NCBI RefSeq assembly: GCF_009377175.1
Contig: NZ_VJZD01000001.1
Location: forward strand, 1 to 64,000
Length of the DNA stretch: 64,000 bases
Reading direction: 5' to 3'
From: Streptomyces adustus
GTDB taxonomy: Bacteria > Actinomycetota > Actinomycetes > Streptomycetales > Streptomycetaceae
Positions 15 through 14,383 of this stretch are shown here, in pieces; the first letter of the stretch is position 1, and the number at the start of each line of letters is the position of its first letter. The position numbers were made by a program, and so were the translations under genes. The notes under the pieces were generated by a model. The model had not been told where the DNA came from. It was given only the letters and a program-made list of their open reading frames with translations, and did no database searches.

Positions 15-320
15 GCGGCGGCCCTGCTGATGGGTCCTGCGCTGGTGGGCGCCCTGGTCTGGCTGCCCGGCCGCCACCCGCACGCCCCGGCCGGTCGCGC
101 GTCGGTCACCCCGGCCGCTCTCGCCCCGGCTTCCGCCACCGGTCCCACCCCGGCCGGTCTCGCGCCGGTCGCCCCGGCCGCCTCCGCCGGTCTCGCCCCG
201 GCCGTCCCGGCCGCGCGGACGTCAGATCCTGACCAACCCGTCGTCGTGGACCGGGTCGCGCGGGGCGGAACCGGCGCGCTCGGCCAGCAGGTTGAGCGAC
301 TGCCGGCAGCGCGTGCTTGA
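15..320 (+). CDS. 3' end of an unidentified gene, possibly a membrane transporter (partial)
   Basis: An open frame runs in from the contig edge. It starts with a hydrophobic stretch (ALLMGPALVGALVW) that could be a last membrane helix, followed by a long Ala/Pro/Gly tail made of imperfect repeats. The hydrophobic end would suit the C-terminus of an MFS drug exporter, which is common beside biosynthetic clusters, but no family motif is visible. The last 99 bases overlap the oppositely oriented SARP gene tail to tail, so the true end or the reality of this gene is uncertain. The start lies outside the window. Confidence 0.35.
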   Translation, partial: AAALLMGPALVGALVWLPGRHPHAPAGRASVTPAALAPASATGPTPAGLAPVAPAASAGLAPAVPAARTSDPDQPVVVDRVARGGTGALGQQVERLPAARA

Positions 321-1094
321 GGGCGGCTCCAGCCGGGGGTGTCCGGACAGCATGTGGGTGTGCAGGCGTTCCAGCCGCGCCGACGGCTTGGTGCCGAGTT
401 CCTCCCGCAGCCGGGCCCGCAGCCGGTGGTAGGCCATCAGCGCGTCCGCCTGCCGGCCCGACCGGTACAGGGCGAGCATGAGGTGTGCGACGAGGTCCTC
501 GTGCGTACCGTACTGGTGCACCAGCGCGGTGAGTTCACCGAGGATCTCGTGGTGCCGCCCCAGACACAGCTCGGCGCCCAGCCGTTGGGGAACCGCGTCG
601 AGCCGGTCGCGCTCGACGACCTCGATGGCGGCCCTGAGCAGCGGGCCGGTGGGCACGTCGACGAGCATCGGTCCCGTCCACATCGTCTCGGCGGCGCGCA
701 ACTGCCCGGCGGCCTCCGCGTATTCGCCCACCTCCAGCGTGGCGCGCGCGGTCCGCACCTGCTGCTCGTAGCGGTCCAGATCCAGTTCCCCGGCGGTCAG
801 CTTCAGCACGTAACCCTGGTCGCGGGTCTCCAGTCGGCCGGGGCGGCGGTCCGGGCCACGCCGAGCTCCGTCCAGGGAGCGGCGTAACTGCATGACGTAC
901 GTGTGCACCGCCGCGACCGCGCTCGACGGCGGCCGGTACTCCCATATCTCCTCGACTATCTGCGCCACCGACACGACGTGGTTGGCGTTGAGCGCGAGGA
1001 GCGAGAGCAGTTGCCGCTGTTTCGGCGCGGTCGGGGTTCTGTGGCGACCCTCGTCGTCGCACACACTCAGCGGGCCGAGAACGCGAAACTCCAT
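222..1094 (-). CDS. SARP-family transcriptional activator (1)
   Basis: A 290-residue protein with the two-part architecture of Streptomyces antibiotic regulatory proteins. Residues 1-95 form an OmpR-like winged helix (MEFRVLGPLSV, then KQRQLLSLLALNAN and the DNA-contacting helix region), and about 100-250 form the bacterial transcriptional activation domain (LDRYEQQVRTAR, ALYRSGRQADAL). I chose the ATG at 1094 because GGGGGAGT lies just upstream and the N-terminus then matches the family; the longer frame adds an unrelated arginine-rich extension. SARPs activate pathway genes by binding direct heptamer repeats, and this one borders a biosynthetic gene set, so it is a likely pathway activator. 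It ends tail to tail with the partial gene at the contig edge. Confidence 0.9.
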   Translation of the reverse strand: MEFRVLGPLSVCDDEGRHRTPTAPKQRQLLSLLALNANHVVSVAQIVEEIWEYRPPSSAVAAVHTYVMQLRRSLDGARRGPDRRPGRLETRDQGYVLKLTAGELDLDRYEQQVRTARATLEVGEYAEAAGQLRAAETMWTGPMLVDVPTGPLLRAAIEVVERDRLDAVPQRLGAELCLGRHHEILGELTALVHQYGTHEDLVAHLMLALYRSGRQADALMAYHRLRARLREELGTKPSARLERLHTHMLSGHPRLEPPSSTRCRQSLNLLAERAGSAPRDPVHDDGLVRI

Positions 1095-1232: not shown

Positions 1233-2942
1233 CTACCACCGCCCGCGGGCGGTGGCCGGTGCCGGTCTCACCGCCGTCTCCCGCGACCCGCCGGTGACCA
1301 GCGCCAGGAGCGCACCGGGGTCGCCGGGCTCCCGGTCGGTCCGCCAGGCGACGTGCTGGTCGGGGCGGATCAGCACCAGATCACGCTCGTACAGCTCACG
1401 CGCGAGCGGATCGTCGAGCGTCAGGGTCCGCAGCGGCACGCCCCGGGCCCGGGCCGCGGCCTCGATCCGTCCGGTGTACGGCGGACGCGGGCCGAGCCGC
1501 AGCAGCGTGAACCCGGGGCCGAACCGGTCGAACAGCGAACTGCCGTCCGTACGGCGGTCGTCGAGCCACAGATGGGGTGCACGGCCGCCCGGCACGGCCG
1601 AGGGCGTGTACGCGGCGAAGGAGTCGGGCACCGGCCCGGACCCGTCCCCGGCGACGACCGGGGAGCCGTCGTAGCGGGCACCCAGCTGCACCCCGAGGGT
1701 GTCCAGGGTGCGCATCCCGTACTCGGCGAGTTGCGCGCCGGTCCTGGCCCGGGCGGCCTCGCCCGCGGCGGAGTCCGCCTCCAGCCAGGCGGGCCGGTCC
1801 ACGGCGCCGAGGCCCTGGCCGAGGGTGCGGGCCGCCGCGGTGTTGCGCAGGGCGATCGGCCGGCGCTCGATTCCGTAGCTCTCCAGGAGATCCGGGCCCG
1901 CCCAGCCCTGCACGGCCGCCGCGAGTTTCCAGGCGAGGTTGGCGGCGTCGTCGACACCGGTGTTCATGCCGAAGCCGCCGTTGGGCGTGAACAGGTGCGC
2001 CGCGTCACCTGCGAGCCGGACACGGCCCGTGCCGAACGACTCGGCGACCAGGGCCGCGCCCGCGGTCCAGGGCCGGTGGCTGAGCACCTCGACCGGCAGG
2101 GGTTCCCCGGCCGCCCGCTGCACCAGCCGCACCAGGTCGGCGTCGGTCGCCGTGTCCGGGTCGACGGAGCTGGTGAGCAGGAAGAACTCGTCCACGCCGT
2201 CGAGCGCGATCAGGTTCAGCGCGAGCTCGGAGTTGACGACCCAGTTGCTCCAGGCGCCGCTGCCGCGCAGGAAGTCCCGGTACAGCGTGGGCACCCGCAG
2301 ATGGGCGGCGGTGGAACGGCGCCCGAGGATGTCCTGGTCGAGGGTGCCCTCTCCCACGTACCGGATGCCGAGGTGACGGCGGACCAGGCTGTGCCCGCCG
2401 TCGCATCCCGCGACGAACTCCGCCCGGAACGTGCGCCGGGCGCCGTCGCGTTCGGCCACGACGTCGACGTGCTCCGCGCTCTCGCGCAGCTCGGTGACCG
2501 TCCAGCCGTAACACAAGGTGAGGCGCGGCCTGGTGCGGGCGTGATCGAGCAGCAGCCGCTCGACGTACATCTGGTTCGCCCGGTGCATCGGTTCGGGGGA
2601 CGGGTCCGTACGGTCGGCCGCGGCCCGTCGGCGCAGCACCTCGCCGCTGCCCGGCCAGGGCAGCAGCGCCAGTTCGTGCGCGTTGTAGCGGGTGAAGAAG
2701 GAGATACCGGCCGAGTGCTCCGCGGGCAGACCGAGTCCGCGGATCCGCTCGGCCAGGCCGAGCGTGCGGTAGTGCTCCATGGTCCGCGCGTTGTGGGTGC
2801 TGCCACGCGGCTGATCGGGCACGTCCTGCTGGGAGTTGAGGACGACGCAGGGCACTCCCAGCCGGTCCAGCAGCAGCGCGAGCGTCAATCCGACCGGACC
2901 GCCACCGATCACGGCGACCGGGGTTGTCAGAGTGTCGTCCAT
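1233..2942 (-). CDS. FAD-dependent aromatic monooxygenase (PHBH/PheA class)
   Basis: A 569-residue group A flavoprotein hydroxylase. The N-terminal Rossmann motif GGGPVGLTLALLL binds FAD, the DG region appears as CDGGHSLVRRHLG near residue 185, and the second FAD motif GDAAHLFTPNGGFGMN is near residue 310. A thioredoxin-like C-terminal domain follows (about 440-550), as in the 550-600-residue phenol hydroxylase/PgaE group rather than the 390-residue core PHBH enzymes. The family uses NAD(P)H and O2 to hydroxylate phenols or decorate aromatic polyketides. GGAGGTGG precedes the ATG. It is divergent from the ligase/methyltransferase operon, so I infer that it hydroxylates the pathway's aromatic substrate; that substrate is unknown. 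Confidence 0.9.
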   Translation of the reverse strand: MDDTLTTPVAVIGGGPVGLTLALLLDRLGVPCVVLNSQQDVPDQPRGSTHNARTMEHYRTLGLAERIRGLGLPAEHSAGISFFTRYNAHELALLPWPGSGEVLRRRAAADRTDPSPEPMHRANQMYVERLLLDHARTRPRLTLCYGWTVTELRESAEHVDVVAERDGARRTFRAEFVAGCDGGHSLVRRHLGIRYVGEGTLDQDILGRRSTAAHLRVPTLYRDFLRGSGAWSNWVVNSELALNLIALDGVDEFFLLTSSVDPDTATDADLVRLVQRAAGEPLPVEVLSHRPWTAGAALVAESFGTGRVRLAGDAAHLFTPNGGFGMNTGVDDAANLAWKLAAAVQGWAGPDLLESYGIERRPIALRNTAAARTLGQGLGAVDRPAWLEADSAAGEAARARTGAQLAEYGMRTLDTLGVQLGARYDGSPVVAGDGSGPVPDSFAAYTPSAVPGGRAPHLWLDDRRTDGSSLFDRFGPGFTLLRLGPRPPYTGRIEAAARARGVPLRTLTLDDPLARELYERDLVLIRPDQHVAWRTDREPGDPGALLALVTGGSRETAVRPAPATARGRW

Positions 2943-3168: not shown

Positions 3169-4887
3169 ATGTTCCTGTTCGGCACACACAGGTCCGCCGC
3201 GCAACGCCTGCGCCTCCACGCCGACCGGGACCTGGGGGCCGGGAACTTCTTCTGGCACGCGTGGCGCATCGCCCGTGACCGGGACCGTCCGCTGCTGTTC
3301 CACCCCGACGTGTCCTCCCCCACCTGGGCGACGGACGAGCCCCGGGCGATGTCCCTGGACGACGTGCGCGTCGCCGCGATCCGCTACGCCCACTGGTACC
3401 GCGGACGCGGGGTGCGGCCCGGGTCGCACGTGGGCCTGCACACCCGCGACGGGCTGCTCGGCCTGATCCACCACATCGCCATCACCTCGCTCGGTGCCGC
3501 CGCCGTGCACTGCAACCCCAAAATGGCTCCGGCCACGGCCGCCGAGTACTTCCTGCGCACCCGGACCACGGTGCTGGTGGGCGACGGCGACCTGCTCAAG
3601 GGCCTCGCGGACGCCTGGGCGTCGGACGCCCCCGGGAAGAGCACGCCCGTGGTCGCGGACATCGCCGTGCTCGCGGTCACCGCTCCCCTGCCGCCCCGGC
3701 CGATGCCCGGCTTCCCGCACCGGCACACCGCCGAGGACCTGATCATGATCTCGCACTCCTCGGGCACCACCGGGCGGCCCAAGGCCCCGGTGTTCCACCA
3801 CGGTTCGTTCTTCGCGGGCAAGCGGGAACGGCTGTGGTCCTTCCCCTCGCTGCGCTCCGACCGGCTGCTGACGGCACTGCCGCACAGCCACTCGGCGGGC
3901 ATCAGCTACCTCAGCCTGGCGATCCTGCTCGGCATCCCGACGCTGATCCTGGACGAGGCGAGCGGCGAGGCCGTGGCGCGGGCGGTCGACCTGTTCCACC
4001 CCACCACCGTGCTGGCCTTCCCGCTCACTCTGGCCGAGGTGCCCACCGAGGAGATCGGCGCCGAGGCCGCCCGGCACATCCACACCTGGCACGGCATGGG
4101 CGACGCCTCCCACGAGCGGCACATCCGCCCGCTGATCGCCCTGGGCCGGCGCACCGAGAACGGCAAGGTGCTGGACGGCTCGCGCTACCTCGACGGACTG
4201 GGGTCGTCGGAGATGGGGATGGTGCTGTTCAAACAGGCCTACACCCCCGAGACGACCCGGTACGCACGCCACATCGGACGGCCCGCCAAGGTGGTGCGCA
4301 AGGCGGCGGTGCTCGACGAGCAGGGCCGTGAACTGCCCGACGGGCAGGCCGGCCGGCTCGGGGTGCGGACCCCCAGCATCACCGCCGGCTACCTGGACGA
4401 GCCGGCCCTGACCGAGGAATCCACGGTCAACGGGTACTTCCTCACCGGTGACATCATGCGCCGCGACAGCGACGGCACCTGGTACCACCTCGACCGCACC
4501 CCCGACGTGATCCACACCGTCGAGGGACCCGTGCACAGCCTCCCGGTGGAGGAGGTCGTCCTGCTTGCGACCCAGGCGCTGGACACGGCGGTCGTCGCGG
4601 TCGACGACCCCGACGCCCCGGGTCACTCCCGCCCCCTGGCGGTCGCCCTCTTCACCGACGGCACCCCGCGCGACGCGGCCCGGCTGCTGAGGACGTGCAA
4701 CGCGGCCCTGGCCCGCGAGGGCCTGGCGCCGCTCGGCGGGCTGCTGTTGGCCGCCGAGCGCTCCGAACTCCCCGTCGGTGTCACCGGCAAGGTCCTCAAG
4801 CGCCTGCTGCGCGAGCGCCTGCGCGGCGTCCTGTCCCGCACCGGCGACCCCGCGCTCGCCGTGTCCGCCCCTGTACGGAAGGTCTGA
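3169..4887 (+). CDS. AMP-forming ligase/synthetase of the ANL superfamily
   Basis: A 572-residue adenylate-forming enzyme. The phosphate-binding loop SSGTTGRPK lies at residues 197-205, though the usual following Gly is Ala. GLGSSEMG supplies the A5-like adenylate contact, YFLTGDIM the conserved A7 Asp, and TGKVLKRLL near the C-terminus the catalytic Lys of A10. The A8 hinge (HLDRTPDVIHT) departs from the usual DRxKD...GGENV pattern, which suggests an unusual second half-reaction or acceptor. Family members make acyl-CoAs or acyl-adenylates; from memory, one branch (CreM of cremeomycin) activates nitrite for diazotisation. It is followed two bases later by the methyltransferase, so they are co-transcribed. 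GAGGT precedes the ATG. The substrate cannot be read from sequence. Confidence 0.85.
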   Translation: MFLFGTHRSAAQRLRLHADRDLGAGNFFWHAWRIARDRDRPLLFHPDVSSPTWATDEPRAMSLDDVRVAAIRYAHWYRGRGVRPGSHVGLHTRDGLLGLIHHIAITSLGAAAVHCNPKMAPATAAEYFLRTRTTVLVGDGDLLKGLADAWASDAPGKSTPVVADIAVLAVTAPLPPRPMPGFPHRHTAEDLIMISHSSGTTGRPKAPVFHHGSFFAGKRERLWSFPSLRSDRLLTALPHSHSAGISYLSLAILLGIPTLILDEASGEAVARAVDLFHPTTVLAFPLTLAEVPTEEIGAEAARHIHTWHGMGDASHERHIRPLIALGRRTENGKVLDGSRYLDGLGSSEMGMVLFKQAYTPETTRYARHIGRPAKVVRKAAVLDEQGRELPDGQAGRLGVRTPSITAGYLDEPALTEESTVNGYFLTGDIMRRDSDGTWYHLDRTPDVIHTVEGPVHSLPVEEVVLLATQALDTAVVAVDDPDAPGHSRPLAVALFTDGTPRDAARLLRTCNAALAREGLAPLGGLLLAAERSELPVGVTGKVLKRLLRERLRGVLSRTGDPALAVSAPVRKV

Positions 4888-4889
4888 TC

Positions 4890-5903
4890 ATGCCCGGTAC
4901 CGAGACGACGGCGGCACGTCAGGTGGTGGACCTGATCACCGGCACCTGGCGGGCCCAGGCCCTGCACGCGGCGGCCGCCCTGTCCCTGCCCGACCACATC
5001 GCCGCCGGACACGGCACCGTCCCGGCGCTGGCCGAACTCACGGGTGCCGGCGAGGACGGCCTCGCCCGGCTGCTGCGGCTGCTCGCGGCACTCGGCGTGT
5101 TCACCGGCGACGAGGAGGCGGGCTACGGGCTCGGTGACGTGGGCGCGCTCCTCGTCGCCGGCGGTGAACGGTCCATGCGCGACATGGTGTTGCTGTACGG
5201 GGAGGAGTTCCACCGCGCCTGGGGTGCGGTGGTGCCCGCGATCCTCACCGGCACCTCCGGCTTCGAGCACGCCTTCGGCACCTCGCTCCATGCCTATCTG
5301 CGCGAGGTGCCCGACGCGGGGCCGCGGTTCCTGCGGGCCATGAACGCCGGCAACGTGTTCTTCCCCGAGGTCGCGGCGGCCTTCGACTTCACGCGGGCGC
5401 GCACCGTGGTCGACGTGGCGGGCGGCAGCGGCCTGCTGCTGTCGGCCGTGCTCCAGGCCCATCCGCACCTGACGGGCTGCGTGTTCGACCTTCCGCACAT
5501 GCTGCCGGTGGCCGAGCGGCACCTGAGCGCAGCCGTCGGCGCCGACCGCTACGAGACCATCGCGGGCGACGTCTTCGACAAGGTCCCCGCGGGCCACGAC
5601 GTGTACCTGCTGTCCCGGGTGCTCCAGGACTGGGACGACGAACGATGTGTGACGCTCCTCGCCAACATCCGCGAGGCCATGGCGGACACGGGACGGCTGC
5701 TGGTGCTGGAGCGGGTCGTCGCCACCGACGGCACGGCTCCGGTGCTGCCGCTGCTGTGGGATCTGCATCTGCTGATGGCCGCGGGCGGCCGCGAGCGCAC
5801 CCTCGGCGGCTACCGCTCCGTGCTGGGCGCCGCGGGCCTGCGCCTGGAGAGCGTGCACTCGCTCGCCCTCGAGACGAGTCTGCTGGTCGCCGCACCGGTA
5901 TGA
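4890..5903 (+). CDS. SAM-dependent O-methyltransferase (AcmO/caffeate-OMT type)
   Basis: A 337-residue class I methyltransferase. The N-terminal half (about 1-110) is the winged-helix dimerisation domain, and motif I VVDVAGGSGLLL near residue 172 binds SAM. The acidic end of beta 2 and the stretch RVLQDWDDERC match the small-molecule O-methyltransferase family (PF00891). Such enzymes methylate phenolic hydroxyls in aromatic natural products. The gene starts two bases after the ligase stop, which implies translational coupling. With a flavin hydroxylase next door, hydroxylation followed by O-methylation is a natural order of steps. The local metK would supply its cofactor. Confidence 0.9.
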   Translation: MPGTETTAARQVVDLITGTWRAQALHAAAALSLPDHIAAGHGTVPALAELTGAGEDGLARLLRLLAALGVFTGDEEAGYGLGDVGALLVAGGERSMRDMVLLYGEEFHRAWGAVVPAILTGTSGFEHAFGTSLHAYLREVPDAGPRFLRAMNAGNVFFPEVAAAFDFTRARTVVDVAGGSGLLLSAVLQAHPHLTGCVFDLPHMLPVAERHLSAAVGADRYETIAGDVFDKVPAGHDVYLLSRVLQDWDDERCVTLLANIREAMADTGRLLVLERVVATDGTAPVLPLLWDLHLLMAAGGRERTLGGYRSVLGAAGLRLESVHSLALETSLLVAAPV

Positions 5904-5951: not shown

Positions 5952-7922
5952 ATGCCCAGCGATGACCTCGACCTGTGCCTCGTCGGCGCGGGACCGCGCG
6001 GTCTGTCGGTACTGGAGCGGCTGTGCGCCAACGAACGCGCCGCGTCCGCTCACCGGGCGGTCACCGTGCACGTCGTCGACCCCTACCGTCCCGGAGCCGG
6101 GCGGGTGTGGCGCACCGGACAGTCGCGGGTGCTGCTGATGAACACCGTCGCCTCACAGGTGACCGTGTTCACCGACGCCAGCGTGAAGATCGACGGTCCC
6201 GTGGAACCGGGACCCAGTCTGTACGAGTGGGCGCGCACGCTCGGTGACGGGCCCGGCGGGGCGACGCTCTACGACGAGGCCGTGCTCGCCGAGGCCCGTC
6301 GGCTGGGCCCGGACGACTACCCGTCCCGTGCCTTCTACGGCCGCTACCTGGAGGACGTCTTCGCCCGGCTGGTGTCCAACGCCCCGCCGCACCTGCGGAT
6401 ACGGGTGCACCAGGCCCGGGCCGTCGCCCTGCGGGAGCGGCCCGAGGACGGCGCGCAGCAGGTCGTCCTGTCCGACGGTCAGGTCCTCGACGGTCTCGAC
6501 GCGGTCGTTCTCTCCCAGGGCCATGTGCCGATCGACGTCTCCCCGGCCGAACGGCAGCTCTCGCAGCGCGCGCGGGCCCGCGGACTGCTGCACGTCCTGC
6601 CGTCCAACCCGGCCGACCTGGACCTGTCGGACGTGCGCTCCGGCGAGACGGTGCTGCTGCGCGGGCTCGGCCTGAACTTCTTCGACCACACGGCACTGCT
6701 CACCCTGGGGCGCGGCGGCCGTTTCGACCGCGTGGGCGCGCGTCTGGTGTACCGCCCGTCCGGCCGGGAACCGCGCATCGTCGCGGGCTCCCGGCGCGGC
6801 ATCCCGTACCACGCCCGCGGCGCCAACGAGAAGGGCGCGCACGGCCGTCACGAGCCGCGGGTGCTGACCGAGGAAGTGGTCGCGGGGCTGCGCAAGCGCG
6901 CGGTGGACGGTGAGCGCGTGTACTTCGGCATCGACCTGTGGCCGCTGATCACCCGGGAGGTGGAGAGCGTCTACTACGGGGCGCTGCTGGCCGCCCGCGG
7001 CCGGGAGGCCGAACGGGAGGAGTTCGTCGAGCGGTTCGTCTCGCTGCCCGAAGACCCGGCGCTGGCCGACGAGTTGCTCGACGCGTACGACATCGCACCC
7101 GAGGAGCGGTGGACCTGGGATCGGATCCTCCAGCCGCACGGCGACCTGGAGTTCGCCGACCGGGCGGAGTTCCGCCGCTGGATGCTGGAGCATCTGCGCC
7201 AGGACGTGCGCGAGGCCCGGGCGGGCAATGTGAGCGGGCCGCTCAAGGCGGCGCTGGACGTGCTGCGCGACCTGCGCAACGAGGTGCGGCTGGCCATCGA
7301 CCACGGCGGCCTGGACGGCACCTCCTACCGGGACGAGGTGGAGGACTGGTACACCCCGCTGAACGCCTTCCTGTCGATCGGACCGCCCTTCTCCCGCATC
7401 GAGGAGCTGATCGCGCTGGTGGAGGCGGGCGTCCTTGACCTGATCGGTCCGGGCATGCGGGTGCGTGTCGACGGTACGGCGGGAGCGTTCGTCGCCGAGT
7501 CGGACGGGGTGGGGGGCGCCCCCGTATTCGCCAGGGTGCTGGTCGAGGCCCGCCTGCCGGCCCCGGACCTGCGCCGGACCTCCGATCCGCTGCTGCGCGG
7601 GCTGTTGTCCACGGGGCAGTGCCGTCCGTTCCGCATCCCCGGTGCGTGCGGCACGAGTTACGAGACGGGTGGCCTGGAGGTGACCGAGCGCCCGTACCAC
7701 CTGGTCGACGCCTACGGCCGCAGTCATCCCCGGCGCTTCGCGTACGGGGTGCCGACGGAGGCGGTGCACTGGGTGACCGCGGCCGGCATCAGGCCCGGGG
7801 TGAACTCGGTGACCCTGGGCGACTCCGACGCCATCGCGCGGGCGGTACTGGCCCTGGCCCCCGCCGCCACGAGCGCCGCCGGGCGGCACTCCGGCAAGAC
7901 GCTGACGGAGGCACCGGCATGA
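5952..7922 (+). CDS. FAD/NAD(P)-binding oxidoreductase (PF13454-like, N-oxygenase candidate)
   Basis: A 656-residue protein opening with an FAD Rossmann motif GAGPRGLSVLERL (residues 10-22), typical of the NAD_binding_9 (PF13454) group. A second nucleotide-binding segment LLRGLGLNFFDHTALLT lies near residue 236, and the C-terminus (EAVHWVTAAGIRPG) is characteristic of long actinobacterial members. From memory, the aspartate N-oxygenases that start nitrous-acid formation (CreE, FzmM) have this length and fold, but the family also includes many enzymes of unknown role. The nitrosuccinate lyase partner is not in the window, though the contig ends 6 kb upstream. It lies 48 bp behind the methyltransferase in the same operon. 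Oxidoreductase is well supported; N-oxygenation is speculation. Confidence 0.7.
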   Translation: MPSDDLDLCLVGAGPRGLSVLERLCANERAASAHRAVTVHVVDPYRPGAGRVWRTGQSRVLLMNTVASQVTVFTDASVKIDGPVEPGPSLYEWARTLGDGPGGATLYDEAVLAEARRLGPDDYPSRAFYGRYLEDVFARLVSNAPPHLRIRVHQARAVALRERPEDGAQQVVLSDGQVLDGLDAVVLSQGHVPIDVSPAERQLSQRARARGLLHVLPSNPADLDLSDVRSGETVLLRGLGLNFFDHTALLTLGRGGRFDRVGARLVYRPSGREPRIVAGSRRGIPYHARGANEKGAHGRHEPRVLTEEVVAGLRKRAVDGERVYFGIDLWPLITREVESVYYGALLAARGREAEREEFVERFVSLPEDPALADELLDAYDIAPEERWTWDRILQPHGDLEFADRAEFRRWMLEHLRQDVREARAGNVSGPLKAALDVLRDLRNEVRLAIDHGGLDGTSYRDEVEDWYTPLNAFLSIGPPFSRIEELIALVEAGVLDLIGPGMRVRVDGTAGAFVAESDGVGGAPVFARVLVEARLPAPDLRRTSDPLLRGLLSTGQCRPFRIPGACGTSYETGGLEVTERPYHLVDAYGRSHPRRFAYGVPTEAVHWVTAAGIRPGVNSVTLGDSDAIARAVLALAPAATSAAGRHSGKTLTEAPA

Positions 7923-8053
7923 CGGCACGCCCGGCGCCGCCGCGGGCCGGACCGCACCCCGGCCGACCGGCGGACCCGCTCGCTCCGGCCACGTACACGC
8001 GCGCGGTCACCTCCCGGGTGCACCACGCCCCAAGAGGTCACCGCACACCCTGA
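7919..8053 (+). CDS. Possible 44-residue coupled small protein
   Basis: This small frame begins with an ATGA overlap on the stop of the FAD/NAD(P)-binding gene and ends 34 bp before the metK start. Its third codon positions are mostly G/C, as in real genes here. The product is Pro/Arg/His-rich with no recognisable motif. It may be a genuine coupled peptide or only the open tail common in GC-rich DNA. Confidence 0.2.
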
Positions 8054-8087
8054 CGCACGCCTCGTCGTCCCGACACCAGGAGTTCTC

Positions 8088-9308
8088 ATGTCTGCCCGGC
8101 TCTTCACCTCGGAATCGGTCACCGAAGGCCATCCCGACAAGCTCGCCGACCGGATCAGCGACACGATCCTCGACGCCCTCATCGCCCAGGACCCCACGGC
8201 CCGGGTCGCGGTGGAGACCCTGATCACCACCGGTCAGGTCCATGTCGCGGGCGAGGTCACCACCAGCGCGTACGCCGACATCCCCGCCCTCGTGCGCCAG
8301 GCGGTCCTGGAGATCGGCTACGACTCCTCCGCCAAGGGCTTCGACGGCGCCTCCTGCGGGGTGTCCGTGTCCATCGGGGCCCAGTCCCCGGACATCGCCC
8401 AGGGCGTCGACAGCGCCTACGAGCAGCGGGTCGACGGCGCTTCCTCCGCCGAGGAGGACCGGCTGGCCCGCCAGGGCGCCGGTGACCAGGGTCTGATGTT
8501 CGGTTACGCCTGCGACGAGACGCCGAGCCTCATGCCGCTGCCCATCCACCTGGCCCACCGCCTGTCGCGGCGGCTGTCGGAGGTGCGGCGCGACGGGACC
8601 GTGCCCTATCTGCGCCCGGACGGCAAGACCCAGGTCACCATCGAGTACCTGGGCAGCAAGCCCAAGCGCCTCGACACGGTCGTCGTGTCGTCGCAGCACA
8701 CCAGCGACATCGACCTGGACTCCCTGCTCACCCCGGATGTGCGCGAACACGTCGTCGAGCACGTCCTGGACGAGCTGGCCCAGGAGGGCATCAAGCTGGA
8801 GACCGAGGGCTACCGCCTGCTGGTCAACCCCACCGGCCGGTTCGAGATTGGCGGCCCGATGGGCGACGCCGGCCTCACCGGCCGCAAGATCATCATCGAC
8901 ACCTACGGCGGCTACGCCCGCCACGGCGGCGGTGCCTTCTCCGGCAAGGACCCCTCCAAGGTCGACCGTTCGGCCGCGTACGCGATGCGCTGGGTCGCCA
9001 AGAACGTCGTCGCCGCGGGGCTCGCCTCCCGCTGCGAGGTGCAGATCGCGTACGCCATCGGCAAGGCCGAGCCCGTCGGTCTCTTCGTCGAGACCTTCGG
9101 CACCGCCACCGTGCCGCAGGCCTCCATAGAGAAGGCCGTGACGGCGGTCTTCGACCTGCGTCCGGCCGCGATCATCCGGGATCTGGACCTGCTGCGCCCC
9201 ATCTACGCCCAGACCGCCGCCTACGGGCACTTCGGCCGCGAGCTGCCCGACTTCACCTGGGAGCGGACCGACCGCGTCGACGCGCTGCGCCGGGCCGCCC
9301 GGCGGTAG
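8088..9308 (+). CDS. metK: S-adenosylmethionine synthetase
   Basis: A 406-residue, full-length methionine adenosyltransferase that makes SAM from methionine and ATP. Visible signatures are [12 protein letters not shown] near residue 14 (with the ATP-contacting His), [12 protein letters not shown] near 127, and the glycine-rich [22 protein letters not shown] near 250. AGGAGTTCTC precedes the ATG. Streptomyces carry a housekeeping metK elsewhere, so a copy inside a cluster with a methyltransferase is probably a dedicated SAM supply. A strong hairpin follows the gene. Confidence 0.97.
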
Positions 9309-9397: not shown

Positions 9398-10366
9398 ATG
9401 CGTGTAGCCGTGACCGGTGCCATCGCGACCGATCAGGTGCTGACCGTCGCGGGCCGGCTCACCGACGGCACGGCGATGGGCCGCGGCGCCGCGGCGGTGC
9501 GGGCCGAGACCCTGCATGTGCGCCGGGGCGGGGCGGGCGCCAACATCGCGGTGGGACTGGGCCGGCTCGCCCTGCGCCCGCTGCTGGCCGGTGCGGTCGG
9601 CAAGGACTTCGCCGACTACGGCCGCGACTTGCAGTCGTACGGCGTGGACCTCGAACTCGTGCACGTCAGCGAGGAACTGGACACGGCCCGGGCGGTGGAG
9701 ATCAGGGACACCGAGGACGGCCGGCTCAGGCTGTCGTACGACGGCGCGCAGCCGGAGTCCCGGCGCATCACCCTGCTGCCGGCCGCACGCCGCATCGGCG
9801 GGCTGGGGCTCGTGGTGGTGGCGGCGGGGGACATCGAGGCCATGGTCCGGCACACCGAGGAGTGCAGGCGGCTCGGCATCCCCTTCGCCGCCGACCCCGG
9901 CGACCGGCTGTCCCGCCTCACCGGCCGCCAGGCGCGCAGACTGGTCGACGGGGCCCGTTACGCCTTCACGGACGAGTTCGACGTACCGCTGCTGCGCGAA
10001 CTCACCGGGTGGGGCGACGCGGAGCTGCTCAACCGGGTGGGCACCTGGGTCGTCACCCGCGGGCTGCGCGGCGTGGCCGTCCTGCGGCGCGGACGCCCCG
10101 CGAACCGGGTGGAGGCGGTACGCGCGGCGCAGGGGGGCGACCCGTCGGGAACCGCCGAGGCGTTCCGCGCCGGCTATCTGGCGGGTGCCGTCTGGGGATG
10201 GTCCGCCGAGCGCGGGGCGCAGCTCGGCTGCGCCCTGGCGGCAGCCGCACTCGAATCGAACGACGCACAGGGATATCCGCTGATGCGGGAGCGGCTGACG
10301 GCCCGTATCCGGTGCACGTACGGCCCGGAGGCCGCGGATCAAATAGCCGCCCGATTGCCCTCCTGA
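9398..10366 (+). CDS. PfkB-family sugar/nucleoside kinase homologue (adenosine-kinase-like)
   Basis: A 322-residue ribokinase-fold protein. The N-terminal glycine-rich motif RRGGAGANIAVGLGRL (near residue 43) and the adenosine-kinase-like opening AVTGAIATDQ are clear. The second signature normally reads DTxGAGDxF and supplies the catalytic Asp. Here it is DPSGTAEAF, so the anion-hole glycine is changed and residue 254 is Glu. Activity may therefore be altered or lost. Adenosine kinase beside metK would clear the adenosine released when S-adenosylhomocysteine is recycled, favouring methylation. I chose the ATG at 9398 with TAGGAG nine bases upstream over the in-frame TTG at 9389. Confidence 0.8.
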   Translation: MRVAVTGAIATDQVLTVAGRLTDGTAMGRGAAAVRAETLHVRRGGAGANIAVGLGRLALRPLLAGAVGKDFADYGRDLQSYGVDLELVHVSEELDTARAVEIRDTEDGRLRLSYDGAQPESRRITLLPAARRIGGLGLVVVAAGDIEAMVRHTEECRRLGIPFAADPGDRLSRLTGRQARRLVDGARYAFTDEFDVPLLRELTGWGDAELLNRVGTWVVTRGLRGVAVLRRGRPANRVEAVRAAQGGDPSGTAEAFRAGYLAGAVWGWSAERGAQLGCALAAAALESNDAQGYPLMRERLTARIRCTYGPEAADQIAARLPS

Positions 10367-10400: not shown

Positions 10401-10515
10401 GGCAGCTCGGCACCGCACGCTCCGGCCGTCCCTCGACGCCCGCTCGCACCGGTCTGCAACACCCTGTCCCCGAACGGTGTTTGTCCCAGTGATGGACGTC
10501 GAGGCAGAGCAGCCG
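10401..10515 (+). repeat. Copy A of a 115-bp duplication: relic of a SARP end plus sigma start
   Basis: This segment aligns without gaps to 11442-11556 at an offset of 1041 bp. The best-conserved stretch (10452-10517) shows only seven mismatches in 66 positions. In copy B the same bases encode the last residues of the second SARP, the sigma promoter and the first codons of the sigma factor. Here the SARP part has lost its stop (GSSAPHAPAV instead of GSSALDAPVV) and the sigma part decays after MDVEAEQPT. It is a fossil of an earlier SARP-sigma junction. Confidence 0.8.
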
Positions 10516-10612
10516 ACACGGCACCCGGGTCGTCACGCGCGGGTCTCGCGTTCGAATAGCGAGAAAAGAAAACCGGCCGACCGACCCGATTCAATACCAC
10601 CCGCTTTTCCAA

Positions 10613-10703: not shown

Positions 10704-11480
10704 ATGAACTCAGGTATTCTCGGCCCGCTCCTGCTGTCCGATACGGAGGAAAATCTGGTCCCGAGCGCGCCGAAACCGCGCCAGCTCCTCGCCTTTCTGA
10801 TGCTGCACACCCCGCAGATGGTGCGGGCCAGCGACTGCATCACCGAGCTGTGGGGATCGACTCCCCCCAAGAGCGCGATGTCCACGCTCCAGACCTACGT
10901 GCTCCACATCCGGCAGGCCCTGCGCGGCCCCCGCAGGGACCGCAGCCATCTGCTCCTGACCAGGAACCAGGGCTACCAGCTCACCCTCGAAACGACCGAT
11001 TTCGACCGCTTCCGGTTCACGGAGCTGACCCGGCTGGGACACCTGGCGACGGCCGCCGGCAACCATCGGACGGCGTCGGAGATGTTCACCCTGGCCCTCG
11101 CGCAGTGGCGCGGTCCCGCGCTGTCCGACGTCAGCGCGGGCCCCCTCAGCTCACCGCATCTGGCGGAACTGGCGGAGACCCGGCAAGGTGTCCTGGAGCA
11201 GCGCATCGAGGCCGACCTGGCGCTCGGCAAGCATCGTGAGCTGGTCGACGAGCTCAGTGATCTGGCCGCGCGCCACCCCACCCACGAGAACGTGCACGCT
11301 CAGCTGATGGTCGCGCTCTACCGCTCCGGCGAGCGCAAACGCGCCGGTGACGTCTTCCAGGGGCTTCGCCGGGCGCTCGGTGACACCCTGGGGATCGAGC
11401 CCGTGCCGCGGATGCGGCGCCTGTACCAGGCGGTCCTGGTCGGCAGCTCGGCGCTGGACGCTCCGGTCGTCCGCCGATGA
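10704..11480 (+). CDS. SARP-family transcriptional activator (2)
   Basis: A 258-residue SARP with a winged-helix N-terminal domain (ILGPLLLSD, KPRQLLAFLMLHTPQ) and a bacterial transcriptional activation domain (DFDRFRFTELTRLG, ALYRSGERKRAGDVF). Its length matches minimal pathway SARPs of the RedD/ActII-4 type, with no ATPase or TPR extension. GGGATAGGA precedes the ATG. Its 3' end runs directly into the sigma-factor promoter, so regulator and sigma unit are physically linked. Two SARPs flanking one set of biosynthetic genes suggests layered control. Confidence 0.92.
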   Translation: MNSGILGPLLLSDTEENLVPSAPKPRQLLAFLMLHTPQMVRASDCITELWGSTPPKSAMSTLQTYVLHIRQALRGPRRDRSHLLLTRNQGYQLTLETTDFDRFRFTELTRLGHLATAAGNHRTASEMFTLALAQWRGPALSDVSAGPLSSPHLAELAETRQGVLEQRIEADLALGKHRELVDELSDLAARHPTHENVHAQLMVALYRSGERKRAGDVFQGLRRALGDTLGIEPVPRMRRLYQAVLVGSSALDAPVVRR

Positions 11481-11556
11481 CCGTTCCCGTCTGTCTGCAA
11501 CACCCTGCGCCCGGACGGTGTTTGTACCAGTGATGGACGACAAGGCAGAGCAGCTG
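11442..11556 (+). repeat. Copy B of the 115-bp duplication (functional copy)
   Basis: This is the intact partner of the relic at 10401-10515. It spans the last 13 codons of SARP 2, the intergenic promoter and the first eight codons of the sigma gene. Both arms of the AACACC/GGTGTT inverted repeat are unchanged between copies; mismatches in this stretch fall in the spacer and flanks. Confidence 0.8.
11498..11524 (+). promoter_or_regulatory. Putative autoregulated ECF promoter/operator
   Basis: CAACACC and GGTGTTTG form 6-bp inverted arms (11499-11504 and 11517-11522) around a 12-bp spacer. CAAC followed about 17 bp later by GTGTTT also resembles the -35/-10 arrangement of ECF-sigma promoters. 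If so, transcription would begin almost at the sigma start codon, giving a leaderless message, consistent with the lack of a ribosome site there. The same element in the relic at 10457-10483 is conserved. Confidence 0.5.
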
Positions 11557-12123
11557 ACCGAACTCCTGGCGGCGCACCTCGAAGCCGGCTTCACCGAGCT
11601 GGTGCGGGTGCACGCCGGGGCGGTGCACGCGTTCCTGTACCGAGTCTCCGGCTCCTTCGCCGAGGCGGACGACCTGGGGCAGGACACGTTTCTGCGCGCC
11701 TACACGGCCCTCCAGGGCTATTCCGCCGCACGGCGCCGTGAACTACGGCCACGGGCGTGGTTGATGACCATCGCGGCGAACGTGTGGCGCAACCACGTCC
11801 GTACCCGGAAACGGCGCCCGGTCACGGCCGGACTGCCCGTGGAGGAGACCATGGACGTCTGGCCGGACCACAGCCCCGGTCCGGAGGAGCGCGCGGCGAC
11901 GACGGAGGAGCGGTCTCGTCTGGTCACCGCCTTGTCGGCGTTACCCGAGCACCATCGCATACCGGTCGTGCTCCACCATGTGATCGGAATGAGTTACTCG
12001 GAGGTGGCCGAGGTGCAGGGCTGCGCCGTCGGCACCGCGAAGGCGCAGGTCTCCCGTGGGCTGGCCGGCCTGCGACGCCTGTTGGAATCGGAGCCCACCG
12101 CGCTGAAGGAGGTGACGAGGTGA
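11533..12123 (+). CDS. ECF-family RNA polymerase sigma factor
   Basis: A 196-residue sigma factor with region 2 (YRVSGSFAEADDLGQDTFLRAYTALQ, core binding and -10 recognition; WLMTIAANVWRNHVR) and region 4 (ALSALPEHHRIPVVLHHVIGMSYSEVAEV followed by GTAKAQVSRGLAGLR, -35 recognition). There is no Shine-Dalgarno; a GTG directly before the ATG is an alternative start, and a leaderless transcript is likely. The next gene overlaps the stop by GTGA, so they are co-translated. That partner is an alkyl-DNA repair fusion rather than a recognisable anti-sigma factor, which points to a sigma factor tied to alkylation damage. Confidence 0.92.
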   Translation: MDDKAEQLTELLAAHLEAGFTELVRVHAGAVHAFLYRVSGSFAEADDLGQDTFLRAYTALQGYSAARRRELRPRAWLMTIAANVWRNHVRTRKRRPVTAGLPVEETMDVWPDHSPGPEERAATTEERSRLVTALSALPEHHRIPVVLHHVIGMSYSEVAEVQGCAVGTAKAQVSRGLAGLRRLLESEPTALKEVTR

Positions 12124-12920
12124 ACGAAAGCGAGGACGACGCGGTCGCGCGGCGTCTGCCGGATCTCGCATCGGCCGCACCGGAGGACTTCGCGCTGCGC
12201 GTGCTGCGCCGTGTGGGCATCTCCGCGGACCACTACGACAGCTACGTACACCTCGACACGGCCGCGGGCGGGCTGTTCGTGGCCGCGAGCCCCCAGGCCG
12301 TGACCGGTGCCTGCCTGGACTCGGCGGGCCTGACCGCGACCGCCTTCGAGGAACTGCACCGGGCACGCACCGGGCGCTCGGCGATCCCGGGCAGCAAGCC
12401 GTTGCCCGGGCTCATCCCGGCACTGCGCACGGGCCGGGCGCGCCGGCTGGCGATCGACCTGTCCGGGCTGCCGGACGAGCAGCGCGCGGTCCTCCAAGCC
12501 GTACGGAACATCCCCGCGGGGCAGTTGCGGCCGCTGAGCTGGATCGCCCGCGAGGCCGACACCGGGACTCCGCCCTCGGCCTCCGACGTCCTGCACGCGC
12601 TGGCGGCCAACCCCGTCGCCGTGCTCATACCGTGCCACCGGGTCACGCACGACAACGGAGCGCCGTGCGACGCCGCGTACCTGCCGAGGACCGGCGAGGC
12701 CCTGCGCCGCGCGGAGCACATCGACATGCGCCGGGTGACGGAGCTGTCCAGGGCCGGCGCGGTCTTCCTCGGCAGCGACACCACGTACATCTACTGCCAC
12801 CCGACCTGCGCCCACGCCCGCCGCATCACGCCCGGGCACCGGGTGCACTTCCGCACCGCGCACGACGCCCGCGAGGCGGGTTACCGGGCCTGCAAGAGCT
12901 GTCGGCCCCTCACCGTCTGA
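12120..12920 (+). CDS. Ogt-type alkyltransferase fused to a C-terminal Ada zinc domain
   Basis: A 266-residue protein in reversed Ada order. Residues 75-210 are the O6-alkylguanine-DNA alkyltransferase region with the acceptor motif IPCHRV (Cys172). Residues 215-264 are the Ada zinc/methylphosphotriester domain: FLGSDTTYIYC, with Cys226, Cys230, Cys258 and Cys261 spaced as in E. coli Ada Cys38/42/69/72. In Ada, methylation of the first Cys turns the protein into a DNA-binding activator. No AraC DNA-binding domain is present here. Translational coupling to the ECF sigma (GTGA overlap, AAGGAGG upstream) suggests it senses alkylation and controls that sigma factor; this control is inference. Confidence 0.88.
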   Translation: MNESEDDAVARRLPDLASAAPEDFALRVLRRVGISADHYDSYVHLDTAAGGLFVAASPQAVTGACLDSAGLTATAFEELHRARTGRSAIPGSKPLPGLIPALRTGRARRLAIDLSGLPDEQRAVLQAVRNIPAGQLRPLSWIAREADTGTPPSASDVLHALAANPVAVLIPCHRVTHDNGAPCDAAYLPRTGEALRRAEHIDMRRVTELSRAGAVFLGSDTTYIYCHPTCAHARRITPGHRVHFRTAHDAREAGYRACKSCRPLTV

Positions 12921-12984: not shown

Positions 12985-13530
12985 ATGCGCACCCCACCCA
13001 CCGCGGCACTCGCCGCGCACCGGACCCCGCTGGGCTCCCTGACCCTCGCGGCCACCGACGAGGCGCTGGTGCTGTGCGCCTTCGACGACCGTGAGCAGGC
13101 GGTGGCCCGGATCGCCCGCGGTGACCTCACCGCCGTGGACACCGACGCCGCCACCCCCGCCCAGCTGCGGATCATCGAGGAGGCGGGCCGTCAGGTGGAC
13201 GCGTACCTCGAAGGCCGCAGCCGCACGTTCACCGTGCCCATGGACCTCCGCCTGGCCACCCCGTTCAGCCGCACCACCGTGGAACGGCTGGACAGCCTCC
13301 TTCCGTACGGGGTGACGGGCACCTACGCCGAGCTGGCCGCCGCGCTCGGGCGGCCGCGGGCCGCGCGGGCCGTGGGCACCGCGCTCGGCGCGAACCCCCT
13401 GTGCGTGGTGCTTCCCTGTCACCGGGTCGTCGGCTCGGGCGGACGCCTGACCGGCTACGCCGGCGGTGTCGAGGCCAAGCGGTTCCTGCTCGACCTGGAG
13501 TCCGGCGGCACGCCCGCGGCCTCCCTCTGA
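12985..13530 (+). CDS. ogt: Methylated-DNA--protein-cysteine methyltransferase
   Basis: A 181-residue O6-methylguanine-DNA methyltransferase. The active-site motif LPCHRVVGSGGRLTGYAGG contains the acceptor Cys145, and the preceding GTYAELAAALGRPRAARAVG is the conserved DNA-binding recognition helix region. The protein removes O6-alkyl groups from guanine by irreversible transfer to the Cys. It follows the Ogt-Ada fusion by 64 bp on the same strand. Two alkyltransferases side by side within a biosynthetic cluster suggest protection from a self-made alkylating agent. Confidence 0.96.
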   Translation: MRTPPTAALAAHRTPLGSLTLAATDEALVLCAFDDREQAVARIARGDLTAVDTDAATPAQLRIIEEAGRQVDAYLEGRSRTFTVPMDLRLATPFSRTTVERLDSLLPYGVTGTYAELAAALGRPRAARAVGTALGANPLCVVLPCHRVVGSGGRLTGYAGGVEAKRFLLDLESGGTPAASL

Positions 13531-13597: not shown

Positions 13598-14383
13598 GTG
13601 ACCAGCTACCACACCCCACACCTGCCGGGCCTGGACCACGGCCACGTGCCCGGCGCGCCCGACGCGGGCACCGACGACACGATCGAACTGCCCGCCGTGG
13701 ACGCGCTGGACTGGTCCGCGCTGACCACGGCACTGGACGCCGAGGGCGTCGCCGTCACCCCGCCCCTGCTGTCGCCGCGCGCCTGCGAGGAGATGCGGGC
13801 GCTGTTCGACCGGGACGAGGTGTTCCGCAGCACCGTCGACATGAGCCGCCACCGCTTCGGGAGCGGCCGCTACCGCTATTTCGCCGCCCCGCTGCCCCCG
13901 GTGGTGGCCGCCCTGCGCAGGCAGCTGTACCCGCCGCTGGCCCGGATCGCCAACCAGTGGGCGGAGCGCCTGGACGGGCCCCGGTTCCCGTCGACCCACG
14001 CCGAACTGACGGCGGCGTGCGCCGCGGCCGGACAGCTGCGGCCCACTCCCCTGCTGTTGCGCTACGGTCCCGGCGACTACAACTGCCTGCACCAGGACGT
14101 CTACGGCGAGCTGACGTTCCCGCTCCAGGTGGCGGTGATGCTGGACCGGCCCGACGTCGACTTCACCGGCGGTGAGAGCGTCTTCGTCGAGCAGCGTCCG
14201 CGCGCCCAGTCCCGTCCGGTGGTGAAGCGGCCGGGCCAGGGGCAGGGACTGATCTTCGCGGTGCACGACCGCCCGGTCCCGTCGACGCGCGGCTGGAGCC
14301 GCTTCATGCTGCGCCACGGGGTGAGCACGGTGCACGACGGCCGACGGCACGTCCTCGGCGTGATCTTCCACGACGCCCCGTGA
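13598..14383 (+). CDS. 2OG-Fe(II) oxygenase linked to alkylation repair (PF09859-like)
   Basis: A 261-residue protein resembling the Oxygenase-NA/DUF2086 family, described as oxidising alkyl damage on DNA and often found beside ada genes. The jelly-roll metal triad is visible as H165-x-D167 in LHQDVYGEL and a distal His, probably H240 in LRHGVS. HRFGSGRYRYF, DFTGGESVFVEQRPR and LGVIFHDAP are family hallmarks. The GTG at 13598 is chosen over an upstream ATG inside ogt that would add an arginine/proline-rich leader. It completes a repair trio (Ogt-Ada, Ogt, oxygenase) analogous to Ada/Ogt/AlkB. Confidence 0.85.
   Translation: MTSYHTPHLPGLDHGHVPGAPDAGTDDTIELPAVDALDWSALTTALDAEGVAVTPPLLSPRACEEMRALFDRDEVFRSTVDMSRHRFGSGRYRYFAAPLPPVVAALRRQLYPPLARIANQWAERLDGPRFPSTHAELTAACAAAGQLRPTPLLLRYGPGDYNCLHQDVYGELTFPLQVAVMLDRPDVDFTGGESVFVEQRPRAQSRPVVKRPGQGQGLIFAVHDRPVPSTRGWSRFMLRHGVSTVHDGRRHVLGVIFHDAP

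What the first reader, a model, noticed from the sequence alone, without database searches (positions are those of the whole stretch)
11498..12920. ECF sigma factor coupled to an Ogt-Ada fusion instead of an anti-sigma factor
The sigma gene and an alkyl-acceptor protein overlap by GTGA. The fusion places an Ogt domain before an Ada zinc domain, reversing the usual Ada order and lacking the AraC DNA-binding domain. The Ada Cys226 could sense methylphosphotriesters, and the protein could gate the sigma factor directly. I know of no described example of such a pair, but I could not search.
Basis: partly seen in the sequence, partly recalled or inferred. Interest (0 to 1): 0.78.

Follow-up and report, generated by a model that had tools for sequence, protein, structure and literature searches.

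The report
Alkylation-sensing sigma switch of genotoxin clusters
A bacterial gene switch (sigma factor) is always found locked to a DNA-alkylation-repair-like protein, and in Streptomyces the pair sits inside gene clusters that make DNA-damaging diazo, nitrosourea or azoxy compounds, where it probably senses alkylation and turns on the cluster and its self-protection genes.

Summary
In detail: ECF sigma gene 11533-12123 overlaps by GTGA an Ogt-Ada protein (12120-12920) with domain order opposite to Ada and no AraC domain. It is no isolated oddity. All 27 relatives found phylum-wide with the Ogt-Ada protein alone have an ECF sigma gene directly upstream; the 4-nt overlap recurs in 49 of 52 loci, into Chloroflexi; one plasmid encodes both as one chain. 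The pair matches the published ECF122 context (6-O-methylguanine methyltransferase neighbour, mechanism unknown), and a 2025 paper mentions sigma plus MGMT genes in streptozotocin clusters, so the pairing is known.

New here: (1) a promoter, TGCAAC-N16-GTGTT, 9-10 nt before the sigma start, is enriched genome-wide in carriers (97 hits vs 3 control) and precedes cluster genes; (2) 29 of 40 Streptomyces-type loci lie beside N-N-bond pathway genes (SznE/F, CreD/E/M, aminohydroxybenzoate synthases); the window belongs to a cremeomycin-like cluster; (3) in that clade the Ogt domain lost its repair residues (active-site Tyr and Lys 0/39, against 37/38 and 38/38 elsewhere) while all four Ada cysteines persist (77/77), pointing to a sensor. 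Direct gating of sigma by Ogt-Ada is inferred, untested.

The parts
11496..11522 (+). sigma-operon promoter TGCAAC (11496-11501) - N16 - GTGTT (11518-11522), 10 nt before the sigma ATG
   Evidence: GCAAC-N15-17-GTGTT upstream of sigma in 35/40 Streptomycetales/Actinomadura loci and 5/10 distant loci, shuffles 0-0.03; genome-wide enrichment in carriers
11533..12123 (+). ECF sigma factor, 196 aa (sigma2 + sigma4)
12120..12123 (+). GTGA start/stop overlap of sigma and Ogt-Ada
   Evidence: NTGA overlap in 49 of 52 loci
12120..12920 (+). Ogt-Ada protein, 266 aa: proposed alkylation sensor and partner of the sigma factor
   Evidence: Pfam, model pLDDT 91.8 pTM 0.85
12132..12215 (+). N-terminal two-helix extension (residues 5-32), outside the range matched by ordinary Ogt structures; candidate sigma-binding element (inferred)
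12231..12728 (+). Ogt-fold domain (residues 38-203); Arg finger, Tyr and Lys of working Ogts lost; PCHR Cys172 codon at 12633-12635
   Evidence: 1sfe Z 17.4; residue table
12729..12911 (+). Ada Zn domain (residues 204-264) with Cys226 (codon 12795-12797), Cys230, Cys258, Cys261
   Evidence: invariant 77/77; methylated N-Ada 1u8b Z 6.6
12985..13530 (+). intact O6-methylguanine-DNA methyltransferase (Ogt), repair arm
   Evidence: keeps Arg/Tyr/Lys/PCHR (REFOGT row)
13598..14383 (+). 2OG/Fe(II) Oxygenase-NA (PF09859), last gene of the alkylation block (first start codon of the ORF at 13466)
10704..11480 (+). SARP-type regulator (Trans_reg_C + BTAD)
10401..10517 (+). 117-nt duplicate (83%) of the sigma promoter region (11442-11558), with a second TGCAAC-N16-GTGTT site at 10455-10481 upstream of the SARP gene
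5952..7922 (+). CreE-like flavin-dependent N-oxygenase (NAD_binding_9)
3169..4887 (+). AMP-binding ligase of the cluster
4890..5903 (+). O-methyltransferase of the cluster
1233..2942 (-). FAD aromatic-ring monooxygenase of the cluster
222..1094 (-). second SARP-type regulator of the cluster
8088..9308 (+). S-adenosylmethionine synthetase of the cluster
9398..10366 (+). PfkB-family kinase of the cluster (methyl cycle, inferred)

Best explanation
The sigma factor and the Ogt-Ada protein form an alkylation-responsive ECF module (ECF122-like). Without alkylation the co-translated Ogt-Ada protein holds the sigma factor inactive, probably through its N-terminal helices and Ogt-fold body (inferred). 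When DNA or the cell is methylated, an acceptor cysteine takes the alkyl group irreversibly (in this Streptomyces clade Ada Cys226, because the Ogt chemistry has decayed), and sigma is released or activated (inferred). Sigma then transcribes its own operon from TGCAAC-N16-GTGTT (sigma, sensor, working Ogt, 2OG oxygenase = repair/self-resistance) and, from the same motif elsewhere, genes of the surrounding cluster (SARP, FAD monooxygenase and SDR here; diazo ligase, MFS exporter or ATP-grasp in relatives). In Streptomyces the module has been recruited into clusters for N-N compounds (diazo, nitrosourea, azoxy), so that the genotoxic product or its breakdown would report on itself. Shown: pairing, overlap, promoter motif, regulon enrichment, cluster context, residue pattern. 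Inferred: binding, polarity (anti-sigma), the alkyl trigger.
For: 27/27 Ogt-Ada relatives found without using sigma have an ECF sigma gene directly upstream, as do 52 of 54 earlier locus entries (of the other two, L049 is cut short and L051 gave no sigma hit); 4-nt overlap in 49/52; one-chain fusion on a Streptomyces plasmid. Promoter motif 35/40 vs shuffle mean 0.03, spacing 16 in 39 of 40. 97 motif hits in 29 carrier genomes vs 3 reversed-control hits; 42 vs 32 in 147 non-carriers (after removing G000, G046, G090). Of 76 distinct sites examined, 33 lie before SDR, MFS, CreM-like, FMO or ATP-grasp genes. N-N pathway genes beside 29/40 Streptomyces-type loci; SznF ortholog 975.8 bits to PDB SznF, CreD 553 bits. 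Ada Cys 77/77; outside the clade Arg finger and Lys 38/38, Tyr 37/38; inside the clade Tyr and Lys 0/39, Arg 1/39 (L024), and the acceptor Cys172 itself lost in 4; clade monophyletic 100/100.
Against: No binding, induction or methylation data. No recognised anti-sigma domain. E. coli methylated Ada works as an activator that touches sigma70 (established knowledge), so the partner could be a co-activator. Two relatives (L207, L208) pair sigma with an intact Ogt lacking the Ada domain, so Ada is not the universal sensor. L014 and L016 show no N-N cluster genes nearby. Many motif sites have no identified downstream gene (43 of 76). Cre-type products are diazoquinones, not proven DNA methylators.
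Confidence: 0.55

Rival explanations
1. Activator model: alkylated Ogt-Ada binds DNA near the promoter or the sigma4 domain and recruits the sigma-RNA polymerase, as methylated E. coli Ada does with sigma70, rather than acting as an anti-sigma factor.
For: Ada Zn domain and its four Cys intact; structural match to methylated N-Ada bound to DNA; dyad-like CAACACC-N12-GGTGTTTG in the window promoter (sequence).
Against: AraC DNA-binding part missing in all 47 members scanned; dyad not kept in relatives, only TGCAAC and GTGTT; strict 4-nt overlap is more typical of sigma/inhibitor pairs.
Confidence: 0.2
2. Repair-only model: Ogt-Ada is just a self-resistance enzyme co-transcribed with a sigma factor that is controlled in another way (transcriptionally, e.g. 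by the SARP regulator, plus autoregulation).
For: Operon contains repair enzymes; distant members keep a complete Ogt active site; SARP genes adjacent in many loci.
Against: Ogt repair residues lost throughout the 39-member clade although the pairing is kept; pairing universal where no SARP exists; one-chain fusion.
Confidence: 0.17
3. Product-sensor model: the zinc-thiolate of the Ada domain is alkylated or nitrosated directly by the cluster's electrophilic N-N product, not by DNA methylphosphotriesters, so the module senses product rather than DNA damage.
For: Clade lives in diazo/nitrosourea/azoxy clusters; DNA-contacting Arg finger lost.
Against: Members without any N-N cluster nearby keep the Ada domain and, in half of the distant loci tested, the same promoter type; no chemistry tested.
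Confidence: 0.07
4. Chance neighbourhood: the gene pair has no functional link.
For: None beyond the absence of experiments.
Against: 27/27 blind recoveries with sigma upstream across many families.
Confidence: 0.01

Closest known systems
ECF122 sigma group (Casas-Pastor 2021 classification as cited in PMC8999054)
   Same: ECF sigma without anti-sigma factor, conserved neighbour a 6-O-methylguanine DNA methyltransferase, mechanism listed as unknown
   Different: group model could not be run; the Ada fusion, the promoter and the link to N-N clusters are not in the text read; in this clade the Ogt part is decayed
Sigma and MGMT genes of streptozotocin clusters BGC0002294/BGC0002313 and the SARP-marked region of NZ_CP047019.1 (PMC12224297)
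   Same: sigma gene, two MGMT genes, 2OG oxygenase near cremeomycin-like genes
   Different: reported only as similarity; no regulon, promoter or sensor analysis
E. coli Ada adaptive response
   Same: Ada Zn domain with acceptor Cys, Ogt-fold domain, alkylation repair operon
   Different: order reversed, no AraC domain, a dedicated ECF sigma in place of sigma70
Cremeomycin cluster (CreE/CreD/CreM, 3,4-AHBA synthases)
   Same: CreE-like in window; CreM-like, AHBA synthase pair and HpaB on contig C36
   Different: CreD missing at the syntenic place in this genome; product unknown

Membership tests
ECF sigma factor | sigma2 and sigma4_2 domains only, ~200 aa | tested here: met
ECF122 group | conserved adjacent 6-O-methylguanine DNA methyltransferase and no anti-sigma gene | tested here: met
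   definition
ECF122 group | match to the group's sequence model | not testable with these tools
   model and reference paper not held
Ada-type regulator | Ada Zn - AraC - Ogt order with AraC HTH | tested here: not met
Ada Zn-binding domain | four zinc cysteines with acceptor Cys | tested here: met
   77/77
Ogt/MGMT repair enzyme | PCHR Cys plus Arg finger, Tyr and Lys of the active domain | tested here: not met
   PCHR present but Arg, Tyr and Lys absent in the window protein; Tyr and Lys absent in all 39 clade members
Class I anti-sigma factor | anti-sigma domain by sequence | tested here: not met
   no Pfam anti-sigma match in 47 members; fold of the N-terminal helices not searched alone
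Anti-sigma function | binds and inhibits sigma | not testable with these tools
   needs experiment or complex prediction
Cremeomycin-type cluster | CreE, CreD, CreM and AHBA synthases together | tested here: inconclusive
   CreE in window, CreM and AHBA synthases on C36, local CreD absent, paralogs 56-58% elsewhere; C36 join inferred from synteny with L167-L169

The most novel reading that the evidence does not exclude
A suicide alkyl-acceptor protein, evolved from a repair enzyme that lost its repair chemistry, acts as a direct, alkylation-triggered anti-sigma factor, and Streptomyces uses it as a feedback switch that couples production and export of self-made DNA-alkylating diazo, nitrosourea and azoxy compounds to their repair.
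Probability: 0.4. Interest if true: 0.88.

Novelty: new variant of a known kind. Interest (0 to 1): 0.7.

Why it matters
If true, it is a kind of sigma control in which the inhibitor is itself the irreversible chemical sensor of alkylation, it gives a mechanism for a sigma group listed as 'unknown', and the promoter motif plus gene pair is a search handle for clusters of genotoxic N-N natural products and for their self-resistance genes.

Tried and rejected
Dyad CAACACC-N12-GGTGTTTG as a repressor operator: dropped because relatives keep only TGCAAC and GTGTT. Ogt domain as the active sensor in this clade: unlikely, residues lost. PDB comparison of the model matched ordinary Ogts from residue 37-38 on and N-Ada from 202-204 on; the N-terminal helices had no listed match, which is not evidence of a new fold. 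Literature searches for a described mechanism gave none in the library held; the primary classification and streptozotocin/cremeomycin papers are not held. Weak N-terminal Pfam match DUF6233 (best E 0.0059) judged chance.

Full report
WHAT IS THERE. The sigma gene (11533-12123) has ECF sigma2 and sigma4 domains and overlaps by GTGA the Ogt-Ada gene (12120-12920). The protein has an Ogt DNA-binding domain followed by an Ada zinc domain; no AraC domain and no anti-sigma domain was found in it or in 46 relatives. The operon goes on with a complete Ogt (12985-13530) and a 2OG/Fe(II) Oxygenase-NA protein (13598-14383). The predicted structure (pLDDT 91.8, pTM 0.85) gives two N-terminal helices (5-32), an Ogt fold (38-203; E. 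coli Ada C-domain 1sfe Z 17.4) and an Ada fold (204-264; methylated N-Ada/DNA 1u8b Z 6.6).

AN OBLIGATE PAIR. In 150 genomes of the genus the Ogt-Ada protein occurs in three, each with the sigma gene next to it. A scan of 84,980 species genomes gave 51 loci, mostly Streptomyces plus Actinomadura, Chloroflexi, Rokubacteria and Acidimicrobiia. Together with the genus loci, 52 of 54 entries have the ECF sigma gene in front; of the other two L049 is cut short and in L051 the sigma query gave no hit. The overlap is NTGA in 49 of 52. A blind test, 396 genomes of the phylum searched with Ogt-Ada only, found 27 new loci, all 27 with an ECF sigma directly upstream. In two further genomes (L207, L208) sigma is paired with an intact Ogt without the Ada domain, so what stays together is sigma plus an alkyl-acceptor protein. 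On a plasmid of Streptomyces sp. NBC_00212 a single 448-aa protein holds sigma region 4, Ogt and Ada domains (its region 2 is not recognised by Pfam), beside a VlmB-like protein, a flavin reductase, an acyl-CoA dehydrogenase family protein and a PLP decarboxylase, a valanimycin-like set.

SENSOR RATHER THAN REPAIR ENZYME. On 77 aligned proteins the four Ada cysteines (226, 230, 258, 261) are invariant. The 38 proteins outside the Streptomyces-type clade all keep the Ogt Arg finger, the active-domain Lys and PCHR, and 37 of them the Tyr (the other has Phe). No member of the 39-member clade keeps the Tyr or the Lys, one (L024) has an Arg in the finger column, and four have lost the acceptor Cys172 (L014, L016, L020, L043). 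The clade is one branch with full support and a long stem. Most clade operons carry a separate Ogt gene; the window's own keeps these residues. The simplest reading is division of labour: the separate Ogt repairs, the fused protein senses through Ada Cys226. That is inference from sequence.

PROMOTER AND REGULON. Upstream of sigma, GCAAC-N15-17-GTGTT is present in 35 of 40 Streptomyces-type loci (shuffled mean 0.03) and in 5 of 10 distant loci, spacing 16 in 39 of 40 cases, ending 9-10 nt before the start codon. 'AAC' in the -35 and a GTT-type -10 are usual for ECF promoters (general knowledge), so autoregulation from a nearly leaderless promoter is likely. The exact motif TGCAAC-N16-GTGTT occurs 97 times in 29 genomes with the pair against 3 for the reversed pattern, but 42 against 32 in 147 genomes without it. 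In this genome there are four sites: sigma, SARP (a 117-nt duplication of the sigma promoter), a FAD monooxygenase and an SDR, the last two on contig C36. In relatives sites precede SDR (15 of 76 distinct sites), MFS (6), CreM-like ligase (5), FMO (4) and ATP-grasp (3) genes; 43 are unassigned, including a few that are the sigma gene's own promoter.

CLUSTER CONTEXT. The window holds a CreE-like N-oxygenase, AMP-binding ligase, O-methyltransferase, FAD hydroxylase, two SARPs, SAM synthetase and a PfkB kinase. Contig C36 holds a CreM-like ligase, two 3,4-AHBA-type synthases, HpaB, SDR, FMO, MTHFR and MFS, and in a relative (L167-L169) these genes are contiguous with the sigma operon; the order suggests that C36 abuts the start of the window's contig. 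This is a cremeomycin-like cluster. Other loci lie beside a streptozotocin-type set: SznF ortholog (975.8 bits to PDB 6m9r), PRMT-like SznE, Rieske, ATP-grasp. SznF is found in 1 of 150 genus genomes, and there about 3 kb from the pair. In all, 29 of 40 Streptomyces-type loci have an N-N marker gene in the fetched flank; none of the other 13 loci of the genome scan has. Several of the remaining 11 are at contig ends; L014 and L016 have none.

KNOWN OR NEW. A review lists ECF122 as sigma factors without anti-sigma, next to 6-O-methylguanine methyltransferases, mechanism unknown (PMC8999054). A 2025 paper notes sigma, two MGMT genes and a 2OG oxygenase shared by a cremeomycin-like region and two streptozotocin clusters (PMC12224297). 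So the pairing is known; I found no text describing its regulon, the decay of the Ogt domain, or a mechanism, within an open-access library that lacks the primary papers.

HOW SURE. Shown by sequence: pair, overlap, promoter motif, regulon enrichment, cluster association, residue pattern. Inferred: ECF122 membership of this sigma, physical binding, inhibitory polarity, Cys226 alkylation as the trigger, and benefit to the producer. I put the full mechanism at 0.55; the main rival is an Ada-like activator using the same sensor.

Noticed in passing
G000 contig C36 (L002:913-2370 +): Inside the same cluster lies a degenerate canonical Ada: Zn domain with the acceptor Cys38 equivalent changed to Ser (VYSRPSC), an AraC-like region and a truncated Ogt part.
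   Followed up: partly
window 7922-8088: CreD (nitrosuccinate lyase) sits between CreE and MetK in relatives (L010-L012, L167) but is missing here; two CreD homologs (56-58%) are elsewhere in the genome.
   Followed up: partly
window 10401-10517 and 11442-11558: 117-nt duplication of the sigma promoter and gene start placed upstream of the SARP gene; the second motif copy is absent from close relatives L010-L013.
   Followed up: partly
L215:8437-9783: One-chain sigma-Ogt-Ada fusion beside valanimycin-like genes on a linear Streptomyces plasmid; sigma region 2 is degenerate.
   Followed up: partly
L207, L208: Sigma paired with intact Ogt without the Ada zinc domain in one actinobacterial family.
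   Followed up: partly
G169 and G176 (loci L102-L111, L119-L128): Two related genomes carry 11 promoter-motif sites each, several conserved between them (e.g. upstream of a cupin gene), so their regulon may reach beyond the cluster.
   Followed up: partly
L022:457-3303, L040:1567-5316, L004:1465-1761: Separate repair islands near some pairs: Ogt, Oxygenase-NA, a small Ada-Zn-like protein lacking the first Cys, and an AlkB-like oxygenase.
   Followed up: no
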